DNA from: Deltaproteobacteria bacterium | GTDB lineage: Bacteria > Myxococcota_A > UBA9160 > UBA4427 | DNA length: 64,000 nucleotides | Reading direction: 5' to 3' | Assembly: GCA_029261855.1 (NCBI GenBank) | Contig: JAJDAN010000004.1 | Coordinates: forward strand, 1-64,000 | In this document: positions 40,274 through 59,344 of the stretch, one piece after another | Layout: each line of letters begins with the position of its first letter | How positions within the stretch are numbered: the first letter of the stretch is position 1 | The notes under the pieces: model-generated | Seen by the model: only the letters and a program-made list of their open reading frames with translations | Told to the model about the DNA's origin: nothing | The model's database searches: none | Program-made: the position numbers and the translations under genes

Positions 40274-40678
40274 ATGTCCAGAAGAAGCGTCGTCGGGGAA
40301 GACGAAGCGACCGAAATCAACCTGTCGCCGATGATCGACTGCATCTTCATCCTGCTCATCTTCTTCATCGTGACCACCGTCTTTGTCGAAGAAACCGGGC
40401 TGCAGGTCCACAAGCCAGACGCGGCCGCAGCTCAGCCCCTCGACGAAGACCGCGAGGGGGTCGTGCTCGAGATCACCGCGGACAACAAGATCCTGTGGGA
40501 GGACGTCGAGATCCAGATGGTGGACGTCCCCGGCCGGGTCAAGGCAAGCACCGCAGACCCCGAGACGCCGGTCGTCATCCGCGCTCACGAGCAGTCCGAC
40601 CACGGCACCTTCGTCGGGGTGTGGGACGCCGCGCGGCGCGGCGGCGCCCAGATCCTGAGCTTCAACACGATCAACTGA
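40274..40678 (+). CDS. exbD: ExbD/TolR family protein (first copy)
   Basis: 134 residues. One membrane helix near residues 18-40 with LSPMIDCIFILLIFFIVTTV, holding the conserved Asp that carries protons, followed by a periplasmic domain. GAGGAG lies 7 bases before the ATG. The helix region is almost identical at DNA level to the second ExbD gene 430 bases downstream, while the periplasmic domains differ; the two copies may form a mixed dimer or serve different partners. Confidence 0.92.
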   Translation: MSRRSVVGEDEATEINLSPMIDCIFILLIFFIVTTVFVEETGLQVHKPDAAAAQPLDEDREGVVLEITADNKILWEDVEIQMVDVPGRVKASTADPETPVVIRAHEQSDHGTFVGVWDAARRGGAQILSFNTIN

Positions 40679-40704: not shown

Positions 40705-41109
40705 ATGGCCAAACGCAGCATCCTCGACGAACGCGACGACGAGACCGAGATCAACCTGTCGCCGATGATCGATTGCATCTTCATCCTGCTCATCTTCTTC
40801 ATCGTGACCACCGTCTTCGTCGAAGAGCCAGGGGTCGAGGTCCGCAAGCCCGACGCCAGCGTGGACGTCGACCTCGAGAAGAGCAGCATCCTCGTTGCGA
40901 TCACCTCGGACAACAAGGTCGTCTACGGCGGCAAGGAGCTCGGGATCGGGGGCGTGGGCGCCCGCGTCCGCAGCCTGCTGCAACAGGACAGCCTGCCCGT
41001 CATCATCCAGGCCGATTCCCGGTCGGACCACGGAGTCTTCTCGGACGTCTGGAGCGAAGTCAAGAACGCCGGCGCCAAGAAGATCAGCCTGTCGACGCGC
41101 AACGACTGA
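40705..41109 (+). CDS. exbD: ExbD/TolR family protein (second copy)
   Basis: 134 residues, the same length as the first copy, with the same membrane segment and a 28-residue identical stretch beginning TEINLSPMIDCIF. The periplasmic part (LVAITSDNKVVYGGKELGIG, LPVIIQADSRSDHGVFSDVW) has diverged. Its gene starts 26 bases after the first copy. It is a component of the ExbB/ExbD motor of this operon. Confidence 0.92.
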   Translation: MAKRSILDERDDETEINLSPMIDCIFILLIFFIVTTVFVEEPGVEVRKPDASVDVDLEKSSILVAITSDNKVVYGGKELGIGGVGARVRSLLQQDSLPVIIQADSRSDHGVFSDVWSEVKNAGAKKISLSTRND

Positions 41110-54627: not shown

Positions 54628-54643
54628 CATCATGCGCATGATG
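54628..54643. promoter_or_regulatory. 16-bp perfect palindrome between divergent operons
   Basis: CATCATGCGCATGATG reads the same on both strands. It lies 47 bases before the start of the acyl-CoA ligase gene and 138 before the dioxygenase gene. Its size and place suit a dimeric repressor such as the TetR encoded in the leftward operon; there is no direct evidence. Confidence 0.5.
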
Positions 54644-54781
54644 CAAATGAGGTTCTCCGGGAGACCCGGATCCCCCAACCCCCACACCGCCAAGCACCCG
54701 GACGGGGTGGCGGAGGACTCTGCAAGTAGCCCGCTAAGATCCCCGGACCCACCTGCGACTCCGCCCTTTGGGAGGTCCACT

Positions 54782-55624
54782 GTGTCCGCCGCCGCCGAGC
54801 AACGCTTCGAAACCATCCAGATCTCGCCGCTCTCCCCGACGGTCGGCGCCGAGATCGGCGGTGTCCGCATGAGCGGCGACCTGCCGGACGAACAGATCGC
54901 CGAGATCCGTCAGGCGTTGCTCGACTGGAAGGTGATCTTCTTCCGGGACCAGGACGTCTCCATCGACGACCACGTGGCCTTCGGGGCGCGCTTCGGCGAG
55001 CTCGAGGTGCACCCCTTCACGCCGAATCTCGAGAGCCATCCCGAGGTCGTCGTCATCCACCACGGTCCCGAATCGAAGCGTGGCCAGAATCGCTGGCATA
55101 GCGACGTCACCTGGCGTCTCGAGCCTTCACTCGGATCGATCCTGCGCGCACGCATCGTCCCGCCGGTCGGCGGCGACACGCTCTTCGCAGACATGATCTC
55201 CGCCTACGAAGGCCTCTCCGACGAGATCAAGGAGAAGATCGACGGCCGCACCGCCACCCACAGCTTCCAGCACAACTTCGGACGCGGCATGACCGACGAG
55301 CAGCGCGCGAAGATGAGCGAGCAGTACCCGGACGCCCACCACCCGGTGGTGCGCACCCATCCGGAAACCCGCCAGAAGGGCCTGTACGTAAACGCCGCCT
55401 TCACCACGCACATCGACGACATGGACGAGGACGAGAGCCGCCGTCTGCTCCGCTACCTGTACCGCCAGGCATCGGTGCCCGAGTACCAGTGCCGCTTCCG
55501 TTGGCAGAAGGAATCCGTCGCCTTCTGGGACAACCGAGCCGTTCAGCACTACGCCGCCTTCGACTACACGCCGGAGGTGCGCCGGGTCGAGCGCGTGACG
55601 GTGGTAGGCGACGCCCCGTTCTAG
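54782..55624 (+). CDS. TauD/TfdA family Fe(II)/2-oxoglutarate dioxygenase
   Basis: 280 residues, the normal TauD size. The facial triad is seen as H106/D108 in RWHSDVT and a distal His in NRAVQHYAAFDY; the Arg in EVRRVERVTV would bind 2-oxoglutarate. It hydroxylates or cleaves a sulfonate, phenoxy acid or similar compound. GTG 54782 has GGGAGG 7 bases upstream. The stop codon TAG falls within the terminal CTAG of the 216-bp element that follows. Confidence 0.9.
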   Translation: MSAAAEQRFETIQISPLSPTVGAEIGGVRMSGDLPDEQIAEIRQALLDWKVIFFRDQDVSIDDHVAFGARFGELEVHPFTPNLESHPEVVVIHHGPESKRGQNRWHSDVTWRLEPSLGSILRARIVPPVGGDTLFADMISAYEGLSDEIKEKIDGRTATHSFQHNFGRGMTDEQRAKMSEQYPDAHHPVVRTHPETRQKGLYVNAAFTTHIDDMDEDESRRLLRYLYRQASVPEYQCRFRWQKESVAFWDNRAVQHYAAFDYTPEVRRVERVTVVGDAPF

Positions 55625-55836
55625 CCCCAATGCGTCATTGGCTTGGCTTCGAGCGCGCGGAGGTCGGGGTAGAACCCTTCGGAACCAGCTTCTCGAGCGG
55701 ATGCAGCTGGAACGGGAGAACCTCACTAGTGTGAGATCGTGTCGGCAGTCTTCAGACGCCGCGCGGGCCGCCCTATCGTGGGCTCCCTGCCGCGCATTGG
55801 AGTCGCGCCCGGATCCGCATGACGGATCAGGGCTAG
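55621..55836 (+). repeat. 216-bp intercistronic inverted-repeat element, copy 1
   Basis: Begins CTAGCCCCAATGCGTCAT and ends ATGACGGATCAGGGCTAG, inverted ends matching at 15 of 18 positions. A central dyad CTCAC-TAGT-GTGAG lies at element positions 102-115. A copy of identical length and homologous sequence lies inverted at 57257-57472. The last 41 bases differ from that copy at 3 positions and the first 19 at one; the interior is about half conserved. The element spans from the dioxygenase stop codon to 27 bases before the DUF1295 start. It encodes no credible protein. Confidence 0.8.
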
Positions 55837-55863
55837 CCGGCACCTGGAACGAAGGAGATACCC

Positions 55864-56757
55864 ATGAGCGACCCGACGACCCGAAGCCGATCCTTTGCGG
55901 TCTGTGCGGCCGCCTACGCGGTGGCGTTCGGAGTCGCCTGCGGGACCGCCGCCGTGGTCCCCACCCACGACCCGGTCTGGATCGCGTTCTGGGCGGACGT
56001 GGCCGCGACCTTCGCGATCTTCGGCTTCAGCGTCGTCTACGACAACTCGAGCTTCTACGACGCGTACTGGAGCGTCGCGCCGATCCCCATCGCGTTCTAC
56101 TGGGCCTTCCATCCCGACGGGCTCGAAGGCCCGTGGCTGCGGCAGGCCCTGGTGCTCGGTCTCGTGTCGGCCTGGGGCATCCGCCTCACCTACAACTGGG
56201 CAAGGGGGTGGGAGGGTCTCTCCCACGAAGACTGGCGCTACGTCGACAAGCGAAACCAGACGGGCCGCGCCTATTGGGCGGTGAGCTTTGCCGGCCTGCA
56301 CATGATGCCCACCCTGCTGGTCTTCGCGGGCTGCCTCGCGATGGTGCCCGCCGTGATGACGGGCACCCGACCCTTCGGTGTCCTCGACCTGGCCGCGGCC
56401 GTCGTCACCGGCACCGCGATCTGGCTCGAGGCCACCGCCGACGCACAACTGCGCCGCTTCCGTCTGAGCAAGCCGCCGCCGGAAGCCATCCTCGACACCG
56501 GCCTGTGGGCGCGCTGCCGGCATCCCAATTATCTCGGCGAGATCCTCTTCTGGTGGGGGCTCTTCGGGTTCGCCCTCGCCGCCGCCCCGCAGACCTGGGC
56601 CTGGACGGGCGCCGGCGCACTCGCGATCACCCTGCTCTTCCGCGTCGCAAGCCTGAAGCTCATCGACGACCGCATGCTCGCACGCCGGCCTGACTACAAG
56701 CGAAGGATGGAGACGGTGCCCGCGCTGCTACCGCTCGGCGCACGCGGCGGAGACTGA
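55864..56757 (+). CDS. DUF1295 (steroid 5-alpha-reductase-like) membrane protein
   Basis: 297 residues with six or seven hydrophobic segments. The C-terminal part is typical of DUF1295/isoprenylcysteine-methyltransferase-like and steroid reductase proteins: TGLWARCRHPNYLGEILFWW, then KLIDDRMLARRPDYKRRME. It probably reduces a double bond or methylates a lipid in the inner membrane, using a nucleotide cofactor; the substrate is unknown. AAGGAGATACCC precedes the ATG. Upstream lies the 216-bp element, so expression may depend on it. Confidence 0.85.
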   Translation: MSDPTTRSRSFAVCAAAYAVAFGVACGTAAVVPTHDPVWIAFWADVAATFAIFGFSVVYDNSSFYDAYWSVAPIPIAFYWAFHPDGLEGPWLRQALVLGLVSAWGIRLTYNWARGWEGLSHEDWRYVDKRNQTGRAYWAVSFAGLHMMPTLLVFAGCLAMVPAVMTGTRPFGVLDLAAAVVTGTAIWLEATADAQLRRFRLSKPPPEAILDTGLWARCRHPNYLGEILFWWGLFGFALAAAPQTWAWTGAGALAITLLFRVASLKLIDDRMLARRPDYKRRMETVPALLPLGARGGD

Positions 56758-56800
56758 CGGCTGGCGCACCGATAAGCGGCGTTGGATGGATCGACCCCGG

Positions 56801-56840
56801 TCGAGCGTGTCCACTACTTGTCGAGTGTGTCCACTACCCA
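56801..56840. repeat. 20-bp tandem duplication at the end of the SRPBCC gene
   Basis: Two copies of a 20-bp unit (56801-56820 and 56821-56840) share 16 bases. The stop codon of the SRPBCC gene is formed inside the first copy. Removing one unit restores a reading frame that continues for about 20 more codons to 56728. Confidence 0.75.
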
Positions 56841-57227
56841 ACCCATCAGGGTGCCGTAGAGGCCTTCCATTGCGGCCTGTGCCTGGGCGGGGTCGCCCTT
56901 CGGGTCGTAGGTGCAGCTCCACTCGAGCTCGCTGCCTTCGCCCTTCTTCCGCACGACCATCGTCGAACGGTAATTGGTGGCCGGGAACGGCAGGTCTTCG
57001 CCGGGGATCGTGTAGATCAGGGTTCGGTTGGCGTCATCGACGGACTCGAGGGTTTCCGCCAGGGTCGTGGGGCCGGCGGCGATGTGACGGATCATGCCCG
57101 GGCCCTCGCCCTCGAGTCGACAGTCGGTACCGGCTGGCATCCAGCTGACGTTGCCGAAGTCCGACACCAGCCCCCAGACCTTCTCGACGGGGTGCTTCAG
57201 ATCGCGGGTGACGCGGACGCTTGCCAT
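56814..57227 (-). CDS. SRPBCC (START/polyketide-cyclase fold) protein
   Basis: 137 residues. It starts MASVRVTRDLKHPVEKVWGL, the usual first strand and helix of the SRPBCC fold, and has CRLEGEGPGMIRHI and LEWSCTYDPKGDPAQ in the barrel. It probably binds a hydrophobic ligand or acts as a cyclase/dehydratase. AAGGAG precedes ATG 57227. It ends early compared with a hypothetical ancestral frame because of a tandem duplication. It lies 29 bases downstream of the second 216-bp element. Confidence 0.8.
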   Translation of the reverse strand: MASVRVTRDLKHPVEKVWGLVSDFGNVSWMPAGTDCRLEGEGPGMIRHIAAGPTTLAETLESVDDANRTLIYTIPGEDLPFPATNYRSTMVVRKKGEGSELEWSCTYDPKGDPAQAQAAMEGLYGTLMGWVVDTLDK

Positions 57228-57256
57228 GGCGGTGCTCCTTCAGTCGAACGCACAGG

Positions 57257-57472
57257 CTAGCCCTGATCCGTCCTGCGGATCAGGGCGCGACCCCAATCCG
57301 GGGCTCGGATCGCGCGCTCCTGCTTCTCGCGCGGCGATTTGGCTCCTGGCACTCGAGTTCACCGGTGTGAAGTTGTCGCGCTCTCGACGAAAACCACCCG
57401 GGAAGCGGGATCCGCGAGGTTCAGCAGAAGCCCAGCGCGCGCTGTGCCACGATAATGACGGATTGGGGCTAG
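57257..57472 (-). repeat. 216-bp intercistronic inverted-repeat element, copy 2
   Basis: On the minus strand it begins CTAGCCCCAATCCGTCAT and ends GACGGATCAGGGCTAG. The central dyad is TTCAC-ACCG-GTGAA at the same element position (102-115) as in copy 1. Near its 3' end GATCCG and CGGATC can form a local hairpin that competes with end-to-end pairing. It spans from the SDR stop codon (TAG inside CTAG) to 29 bases before the SRPBCC start, the same relation to its genes as copy 1. Confidence 0.8.
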
Positions 57473-58209
57473 ACGAGCAGCCCTCCATCGGCAACGAACT
57501 CCGACCCCGTCGAGTAGCTCGATTCGTCCGACAGCAGGAAGAGTGCGAGGCGTGCGATCTCGATGGGCTCGCCGATGCGGCCCAGGGGCAGCGCGTCGTG
57601 GGGAGTCGGCTCGCCGGGCTCGCGCTTGCCGAAGCCGCGCGCCATCTCGGTGTCGACACCACCTGGGTGGATCGAGTTGACGCGGATACCGTGACGACCG
57701 AGCTCGAGGGCCGCGGTCCGCGTGAGTCCGCGCATGCCGAACTTGCTCGACACGTAGCCCGCGGCAGTCGGCACGGCCTTGAAGCCCGCCGTCGACGAGA
57801 CGTTCACGATCGAGCCGCCGTCCTGGTCGCGCATCACCCGCCCCACCGCCTGGATGCCTCGAAAGCAACCGACCAGGTTCACCTCGAGCACACGTCGATA
57901 GTCTTCGACGTCCATTTCGAGGATCGGCTTCGCGACGAGGATGCCGGCGTTGTTGACGAGTCCGTCGATGCGGTCGAAGCGCTGACAGGCAGTGTCGACC
58001 ACCGCCTGCCAGTCCGCGGAAGACGTGACGTCGTGGCGGACGAAGAGCGCCCCATCGCCGAGTGACGCGGCGACCTGACGGCCCGCTTCTTCGAGTACGT
58101 CGGTCAGAACGACCCGCGCGCCTTCTTCGACGAAGAGCCGCGCTTCGGCCTCGCCCTGGCCCCGGGCCGCGCCCGTGACCACGACGACCTTGTCGTCGAG
58201 CCGTCCCAT
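57469..58209 (-). CDS. SDR family oxidoreductase
   Basis: 246 residues. TGAARGQGEAEA at the N terminus binds the cofactor; NNAG, SSTAG (catalytic Ser) and YVSSKFG (YxxxK) follow. TDVLEEAG after strand 2 favours NAD(H). It looks like a 3-alpha/20-beta-hydroxysteroid or related dehydrogenase. GGGAGGGG lies about 9 bases before ATG 58209. Its stop is the TAG of the 216-bp element. It is 25 bases downstream of the OmpA-family gene. Confidence 0.9.
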   Translation of the reverse strand: MGRLDDKVVVVTGAARGQGEAEARLFVEEGARVVLTDVLEEAGRQVAASLGDGALFVRHDVTSSADWQAVVDTACQRFDRIDGLVNNAGILVAKPILEMDVEDYRRVLEVNLVGCFRGIQAVGRVMRDQDGGSIVNVSSTAGFKAVPTAAGYVSSKFGMRGLTRTAALELGRHGIRVNSIHPGGVDTEMARGFGKREPGEPTPHDALPLGRIGEPIEIARLALFLLSDESSYSTGSEFVADGGLLV

Positions 58210-58234
58210 TCGACCGACCCCTCCCGCGCCGCGG

Positions 58235-59344
58235 CTAGCGGACGAGCTCGATCTCCGTGCGGCGGTTCTCGGCGTTGCTGCTCTCGCTGTCGTCCGCGAA
58301 GAGCGGTGCATCCGCACCGAATCCTTCGACGTCGATGCGACGCGCCGGAACGCCCGCGTTGACCAGGGCATCCCGCGTCGCTTCCGCGCGCCTCATGGAC
58401 AGTGCACGGTTGTAGTCGACGTTGCCCTTGGAGTCCGTGTGACCCTGGATGCGAACCCGGGCGCCCGGGGACGCCTCGACCTGCTGGGCGATCTCCCCGA
58501 GCTCGGGTCGATAGCTGGCGGCGACGTTCGCACTGTCGAAGCCGAACTTCACGGACCAACGCGTTCGGTCCTGCGCCGGCACGGGCGGTGCGGCCGCCAC
58601 GGCGGGCAGCTTCCGCTCGGCCACGGTCACGGTGCCGAGGAAGACTTCGCGGTTGAGTGCATGCAGCTGCGCCTCGCTTCCGACGGCACTCGCGGGCCGC
58701 GAGCTACCGCACTCGGTCAGATCGGAAATGCGGCGCAGCAGCACGCCGCCACTCTCGCTCTCTCCCACCTGCACCGTGTGCAAGCAGACGGTGCCGTCGT
58801 ACGACTCGACCAGCTCGCTCGCGGATGCGACCACGCGCTCGTCGTCGACGTCGCGACCGAACTCGTCGGTAACGACGCCGTCGCTGAAGATCACCACCGC
58901 CGCGCGACCCTTGCTTCCGGCCAGCGACTTCTTCGTCTCGCCGAGCACCTTGTGGAGCGGTGTTCCCGATTCGAGGTACGGCATCTCGGCATTCTTCGCC
59001 TGGAAGCCGGCGCGGTCGAAGCGCGCGAGCGGGATCTCGCTGCGATTGAAGCCGCCGAAGGCGACGGCGCCCGCCTGGTAGTCACCGTCGGGGCTCGCGC
59101 CCACGAACGATTCCACGAGCGCGCGCTCCTGATAGAACATGGCTCCATCGTCGAGAGACGCGGACGAATCGATGATCACGTAGAGCTGGTCGACGACGAC
59201 GGCCTCACCTGCCGCCGGCTGCAGCGGTCGCGCCGCGACCTTCTGCACCGCGGGCTCGGGCGTCGCGCAGGCAACTGCGAAGAGAAGGAGGAAGGTGGAA
59301 GGGACGAGCACGGAGACGAGGGAACGGGGCGCAGTGCGGAACAT
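58235..59344 (-). CDS. VWA/OmpA-family lipoprotein
   Basis: 369 residues. A signal peptide with lipobox AVAC is followed by a von Willebrand factor A-like domain (about 50-210; VVVDQLYVIIDSSASLDDGA with a MIDAS-like DSSAS). Then comes a C-terminal OmpA peptidoglycan-binding domain (about 250-369; GARVRIQGHTDSKGNVDYNR and NRRTEIEL). It probably ties the outer membrane to the cell wall and binds a partner through the VWA part. GGAG lies 6 bases before ATG 59344. The unusual fusion order (VWA then OmpA) is clear in sequence. Confidence 0.88.
   Translation of the reverse strand: MFRTAPRSLVSVLVPSTFLLLFAVACATPEPAVQKVAARPLQPAAGEAVVVDQLYVIIDSSASLDDGAMFYQERALVESFVGASPDGDYQAGAVAFGGFNRSEIPLARFDRAGFQAKNAEMPYLESGTPLHKVLGETKKSLAGSKGRAAVVIFSDGVVTDEFGRDVDDERVVASASELVESYDGTVCLHTVQVGESESGGVLLRRISDLTECGSSRPASAVGSEAQLHALNREVFLGTVTVAERKLPAVAAAPPVPAQDRTRWSVKFGFDSANVAASYRPELGEIAQQVEASPGARVRIQGHTDSKGNVDYNRALSMRRAEATRDALVNAGVPARRIDVEGFGADAPLFADDSESSNAENRRTEIELVR

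What the first reader, a model, noticed from the sequence alone, without database searches (positions are those of the whole stretch)
55621..57472. Two homologous 216-bp elements that exactly fill intercistronic gaps
Copy 1 (55621-55836, plus) and copy 2 (57257-57472, minus) are both 216 bp, begin and end with CTAG, have inverted ends, and carry a central dyad (CTCAC-N4-GTGAG, TTCAC-N4-GTGAA) at the same position. The last 41 bases differ at 3 positions and the first 19 at one, while the middle is about half conserved. In both cases the same end supplies the TAG stop codon of the upstream gene and the other end stops 27-29 bases before the start codon of the next codirectional gene, leaving only its ribosome binding site. 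Simple random insertion would not give this twice. Conserved ends, a conserved central dyad and a local hairpin that competes with end-to-end pairing suggest a structured RNA, an intercistronic promoter/operator unit, or a non-autonomous mobile element targeting CTAG at stop codons.
Basis: seen in the sequence. Interest (0 to 1): 0.85.

Follow-up and report, generated by a model that had tools for sequence, protein, structure and literature searches.

The report
Short mobile element targeting CTAG sites
The two 216-base segments are copies of a small non-coding jumping DNA element that inserts at the rare sequence CTAG, which in this bacterium often is the end of a gene, so it lands neatly behind genes without breaking them; it is a new family of a familiar kind, with an unexplained conserved symmetric design.

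Summary
Copies at 55621-55836 (+) and 57257-57472 (-) are homologous 216-bp elements. Genome-wide searches turn the pair into a dispersed family: 37 right ends in this 7-Mb Myxococcota MAG, 6 in a same-genus MAG, 14 in another genus, and none in 27 other MAGs of the family. Both window insertions are missing from the orthologous same-genus locus, where the upstream genes already end in TAG. Head-to-tail copies share one CTAG. This is a MITE-like non-autonomous element with a CTAG (or TA) target duplication. The stop-codon coincidence is explained: CTAG is rare here (32 seen, 192 expected) and mostly lies at stops or between genes, and the duplication restores TAG. Which end supplies the stop, and the 27-29-base gap, do not hold across the family. 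A structured RNA or a promoter/operator unit is not supported. Not explained are an exactly central TCAC-N4-GTGA dyad and half-lengths kept at 106 bp despite compensating indels in four subfamilies. The transposase was not found, and a MAG could easily miss it.

The parts
55621..55836 (+). Copy 1: full-length 216-bp element, subfamily A, L end at 55621
   Evidence: 8 further copies in the genome at 88-93% identity over (nearly) the whole length; empty orthologous site in G001
57257..57472 (-). Copy 2: full-length 216-bp element, subfamily B, L end at 57472
   Evidence: 5 further full-length copies in the genome at 86-89% identity; empty orthologous site in G001
55621..55624 (.). CTAG target copy; supplies the TAG stop of the TauD-family gene 54632-55624
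   Evidence: G001 ortholog ends TTC TAG without the element
55833..55836 (.). Second CTAG copy (target duplication)
55621..55637 (+). L terminal inverted repeat CTAGCCCCAATGCGTCA
55790..55836 (+). R end with hairpin GATCCG-CATGA-CGGATC next to CTAG; its outer arm is the R terminal inverted repeat
   Evidence: alignment A1 and model R1
55723..55734 (.). Central dyad TCAC-TAGT-GTGA at the exact midpoint of copy 1
57469..57472 (.). CTAG target copy of copy 2; supplies the TAG stop of the minus-strand SDR gene (ORF 57469-58371)
57257..57260 (.). CTAG at the R end of copy 2 (target duplication)
57257..57303 (-). R end with hairpin of copy 2
57359..57370 (.). Central dyad TCAC-ACCG-GTGA of copy 2, at the exact midpoint
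54632..55624 (+). Host gene upstream of copy 1: TauD/TfdA dioxygenase family (PF02668)
55864..56757 (+). Host gene downstream of copy 1: DUF1295 (PF06966) membrane protein
56814..57227 (-). Host gene downstream of copy 2: Polyketide_cyc2/START-like (PF10604)

Best explanation
The two segments are non-autonomous transposable elements of a MITE-like family. SHOWN: about 216-bp units with terminal inverted repeats CCC(C/T)(A/G)AT(C/G)CGTCA, each flanked by CTAG, dispersed through the genome in three subfamilies and also present in two related species; both window sites are empty in a same-genus genome; tandem copies share one CTAG. INFERRED: a transposase acting in trans binds the inverted repeats, moves the unit and joins it into CTAG, so that CTAG (or only its central TA) is duplicated. 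Because CTAG is scarce and in this genome mostly lies at TAG stop codons or between genes, and because the duplication rebuilds TAG at both ends, insertions behind a gene leave the protein intact and survive. Short forms (33-101 bp) look like later internal deletions. The central dyad and the fixed spacing probably serve the element's own nucleoprotein complex (a dimer-bound site phased with the ends); that last step is a guess.
For: Own genome: over 20 near-complete or long copies plus many ends; 37 R ends by covariance model; 7 contig ends fall in copies, as expected for an assembly-breaking repeat. Both terminal tetranucleotides are CTAG in 24 of 31 copies examined; in the others one or both ends have mutated. 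Empty sites: G001:C229 aligns across both insertions at 81-83% identity (74% for the Polyketide_cyc2 gene) and lacks the element; TauD ends TTCTAG there, SDR ends GCGTAG. Tandem copies share one CTAG at C48:83269-83510, C30:22835 and C34:150304. None of the G001 copies fetched shares flanks with the G000 copies compared, so those insertions are independent. About 20 of 30 copies have a flanking gene stopping in a terminal CTAG, and four have convergent genes stopping in both ends. CTAG: 32 in the window against 192 expected from composition or 80 from a maximal-order Markov estimate; only 7 are coding.
Against: No autonomous partner found. PF01797, PF13701, PF01609, PF13358 and PF13546 are absent from G000, and no pair of these ends 0.8-3 kb apart was seen. 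The constant length and exactly central dyad are not typical of decaying MITEs. Transposition itself was not observed.
Confidence: 0.92

Rival explanations
1. The mobiliser is an IS630/Tc1-mariner enzyme: the true target duplication is TA inside CTAG, and the element ends GCCCC...GGGC.
For: IS630 transposes preferentially to TA in CTAG (Tenzen and Ohtsubo 1991, title cited in PMC2170065). All data here fit a TA duplication as well as a CTAG one, since C and G can be target or element bases. G012 has one IS630-type gene.
Against: No PF13358 gene in G000 or G001. The G012 IS630 copy has different ends.
Confidence: 0.35
2. The mobiliser is an IS5-group DDE enzyme making a 4-bp CTAG duplication.
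For: MITEPsy1 of Pseudomonas syringae, thought IS5-derived, duplicates CTAG or YTAA (PMC3189936). G012 has an IS5-like element (PF01609) flanked by CTAG.
Against: Its inverted repeat GGGAACCTCTGCACA is different; no PF01609 in G000 or G001.
Confidence: 0.35
3. REPIN-like element moved by a Y1 (RAYT/IS200-type) transposase: tetranucleotide plus hairpin at the end, palindromic pair of ends.
For: R end = CTAG plus an 8-10 bp hairpin, well conserved in all subfamilies; 33-bp forms are CTAG-hairpin-CTAG; long vertical persistence without a transposase inside the element.
Against: No PF01797 at E<=1 in G000, which carries the most copies, while control genomes ring. REP tetranucleotide is GTAG/GGAG (own knowledge). 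The L end has no comparable conserved hairpin.
Confidence: 0.1
4. A structured or regulatory RNA, or a promoter/operator unit shared by two operons.
For: Conserved ends and central dyad; located between co-directional genes in the two window copies.
Against: Interior fold z-scores scatter around 0 (+1.5 to -2.3), no Rfam match, no sigma-70-like promoter and no terminator excess. Other copies lie between convergent genes and at variable distance from starts. Both sites are empty in G001 with the same genes.
Confidence: 0.03

Closest known systems
MITEPsy1 (Pseudomonas syringae pv. phaseolicola; PMC3189936)
   Same: Short non-coding element with inverted repeats, duplicating CTAG (or YTAA)
   Different: 100 bp; different inverted repeat (GGAAGGTCTGAAAAAGCC); linked to an IS5-type element; no central dyad reported in the passages read
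IS630 (Tc1/mariner family) and MITEs moved by such enzymes (e.g. Correia/NEMIS elements, own knowledge)
   Same: IS630 prefers CTAG; compact MITEs with TA duplication, many intergenic
   Different: No IS630-type gene in the carrier genome or in the same-genus MAG; ends not matched to any IS630 copy seen
REPINs mobilised by RAYTs (own knowledge)
   Same: Tetranucleotide next to an imperfect hairpin, paired inverted ends, mobiliser not inside the element
   Different: No RAYT/Y1 gene; CTAG instead of GTAG/GGAG; 216 bp; CTAG at both ends
MIRU elements of mycobacteria (own knowledge)
   Same: Short repeats lying between stop and start codons of adjacent genes, keeping the stop codon
   Different: MIRUs target and rebuild overlapping start/stop (DTGA) and form tandem arrays; here CTAG, on either strand, also between convergent genes

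Membership tests
MITE (non-autonomous DNA transposon) | Short, no coding capacity, multi-copy and dispersed | tested here: met
   216 bp; no shared open frame with a start that looks coding; 37 R ends in G000
MITE (non-autonomous DNA transposon) | Terminal inverted repeats | tested here: met
   17 terminal pairs, 84% of cells paired over 17 copies, mismatches mainly at columns 8, 9 and 12
MITE (non-autonomous DNA transposon) | Target site duplication / empty site | tested here: met
   CTAG at both ends; two empty sites in G001 with a single CTAG and CTAC; CTAG versus TA duplication cannot be told apart
MITE (non-autonomous DNA transposon) | Ends shared with an autonomous element | tested here: inconclusive
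   None found in G000/G001/G012; MAGs lose repeats
REPIN/RAYT | RAYT (Y1_Tnp, PF01797) gene in the genome | tested here: not met
   0 matches at E<=1 in G000
REPIN/RAYT | GTAG/GGAG tetranucleotide 5' of a palindrome | tested here: not met
   CTAG
IS630-mobilised MITE | TA duplication | tested here: inconclusive
   Compatible, not separable from CTAG
IS630-mobilised MITE | IS630 transposase (DDE_3, PF13358) in the carrier | tested here: not met
   None in G000 or G001; one in G012 with other ends
IS5-mobilised MITE | IS5-type transposase (PF01609) with matching ends | tested here: not met
   None in G000/G001; the G012 copy L109 has other ends
MIRU | DTGA start/stop overlap at ends, direct-repeat arrays | tested here: not met
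   Ends are CTAG, with dispersed copies; the MIRU definition is own knowledge

The most novel reading that the evidence does not exclude
A mobile unit with selected symmetric architecture. The two ends and a dimer-binding dyad at the exact midpoint must keep a fixed spacing (106 nt per half) for the unit to move or persist, while the sequence between is free. It is moved by a single host-resident transposase that does not lie in the element, so the system is vertically maintained like REPIN-RAYT but with an unrelated enzyme.
Probability: 0.15. Interest if true: 0.6.

Novelty: new member of a known kind. Interest (0 to 1): 0.38.

Why it matters
It explains how a transposon can appear to 'know' gene boundaries: targeting a rare tetranucleotide that is itself a stop codon, and rebuilding it on both sides, gives safe insertions behind genes in a dense genome. 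The conserved midpoint dyad with compensating indels is a testable hint that spacing, not sequence, is what selection sees in the interior of such elements. It also warns annotators of uncultured Myxococcota that this repeat breaks assemblies and can be mistaken for a regulatory RNA.

Tried and rejected
Structured RNA: interior z-scores scatter around 0, no Rfam match. Promoter/terminator unit: no excess. Coding element: frames differ and contain stops between subfamilies. RAYT/REPIN: no Y1 gene. IS1380 (PF13701), IS4/IS5-type (PF01609), IS630 (PF13358) and IS701 (PF13546) transposases: none in G000. Candidate autonomous copies in G012 (L109, L111, L112, L149): ends do not match. A transposase gene recurring next to copies (all-against-all of 477 flanking frames): the cross-locus matches did not point to a candidate; these proteins were not annotated. 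Viral contigs, plasmids and phages: no match. Orientation rule 'L end at the stop': 8 L-only versus 4 R-only full-length copies plus 2 with both, not significant (orientation of A_C89c corrected by eye).

Full report
OBSERVATION. The two segments are as described: 216 bp each, CTAG at both ends, 135/216 identical without gaps, one difference in the first 19 and three in the last 41 positions, and a dyad in the middle. blastn finds one from the other at E=5e-15. The ORF calls agree that the L end supplies the TAG of the TauD-family gene (54632-55624) and of the minus-strand SDR gene (stop at 57469-57471), with 27 and 29 bases to the next start.

A GENOME-WIDE FAMILY. The window lies in G000, a 6.96-Mb assembly of 91 contigs. 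Copy 1 finds 14 further copies matching over at least 146 bp at 88-96% identity, plus many fragments; copy 2 finds five more full-length copies at 86-89%. A third subfamily (E; C31:49882-50097 and C34:117327-117542, 98% alike) turned up from the end pattern. Seven contigs begin or end inside a copy. A covariance model of the R end gives 37 matches in G000, 6 in the same-genus genome G001, 14 in G012 of another genus, and none in the 27 other genomes of the family. There is none in viral contigs, phages or plasmids.

IT MOVES, INTO CTAG. In G001 one contig (C229) is syntenic with 54760-57951 of the window and lacks both elements. Removing each element with one CTAG restores the alignment: TauD ends ...CCC TTC TAG in G001 and ...CCG TTC TAG in the window; at copy 2 the junction is GCAGGCTACGCGAG in G001 against ACAGG-CTAG-ACGAG here, and the SDR gene still ends in TAG. 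So the stop codons were there first. Neighbouring copies join through a single shared CTAG. Of 31 copies compared, 24 have CTAG at both ends and no further target consensus is evident. G001 copies do not share flanks with the G000 copies compared. Whether the duplication is CTAG or only its TA cannot be decided from these data.

WHY STOP CODONS. CTAG occurs 32 times in the window against 192 expected from base composition and 80 from a maximal-order Markov estimate; only 7 are coding by a simple reading-frame criterion, the rest being stops or intergenic. An element that needs CTAG will therefore mostly land at TAG stops or between genes, and the duplication rebuilds TAG on both sides. About 20 of 30 copies have a gene stopping in a terminal CTAG; in four, convergent genes stop in both, as expected if they once shared a single palindromic CTAG. 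Stops are supplied by the L end in 8 full-length copies, by the R end in 4 and by both in 2, and the distance to the next start varies, so those two regularities in the finding are chance. These gene calls are automated, and one or two are borderline.

WHAT IT IS NOT. The interior (positions 23-176) folds no better than dinucleotide shuffles (z from +1.5 to -2.3, scattered around 0), the ends account for the excess, Rfam has no match, and there is no sigma-70-like promoter or terminator excess. The R hairpin is conserved (93% of cells paired) but most of its pairs never vary.

ANATOMY THAT REMAINS ODD. Subfamilies A, B, E (G000) and C (G001) are 57-72% identical to one another yet all 216 bp; D (G012) is 219 bp. 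The conserved parts are the L end, the R end with hairpin, and TCAC-N4-GTG(A) centred at 108.5, the exact midpoint (110.5 against 110.0 in D). The left halves of A, B and E differ by compensating one-base indels (A-B gapped score 104 versus 65 ungapped; A-E 94.5 versus 51; B-C 112.5 versus 68.5), but each half stays 106 nt. Short forms of 33 to 101 bp exist and look like internal deletions, although mobility of short forms is not excluded. Spacing therefore looks selected; a dimer-bound site phased with the ends is my guess.

MOBILISER UNKNOWN. Five transposase domain families were tested and are absent from G000, and no pair of ends 0.8-3 kb apart was seen. A MAG of 98.6% completeness that breaks at repeats can easily lack multi-copy transposons, so absence is weak evidence. 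Precedents for CTAG: IS630 (title cited in PMC2170065) and MITEPsy1, thought IS5-derived (PMC3189936). G012 holds an IS5-like element flanked by CTAG, but with other ends.

VERDICT. A new MITE-like family in uncultured Myxococcota: ordinary in kind, with a neat explanation of its gene-boundary precision and one unexplained structural regularity.

Noticed in passing
window 40301-40422 and 40735-40856: 122-bp direct repeat at 89% identity that encodes the same 40-residue stretch ([27 protein letters not shown]), looking like two adjacent ExbD-like genes.
   Followed up: partly
L109:1024-2174 (G012:C26): Apparently intact IS5-like element (PF01609) with inverted repeat GGGAACCTCTGCACA flanked by CTAG on both sides; different ends from the 216-bp family but the same target.
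   Followed up: partly
L098:990-1022, L103:1048-1080 (G000); G012:C81:1924-1956 and C73:201-233: 33-bp minimal forms, CTAG-hairpin-CTAG, at two sites in G000 and at two sites with paired ends 33 bp apart in G012; recurrent internal deletion or a mobile minimal form.
   Followed up: partly
window 1-64000: CTAG is strongly depleted: 32 found against 192 expected from composition.
   Followed up: yes
G000 contigs C63, C26, C86, C34, C21, C22, C30: Contig ends fall inside copies of the element: this repeat limits the assembly.
   Followed up: no
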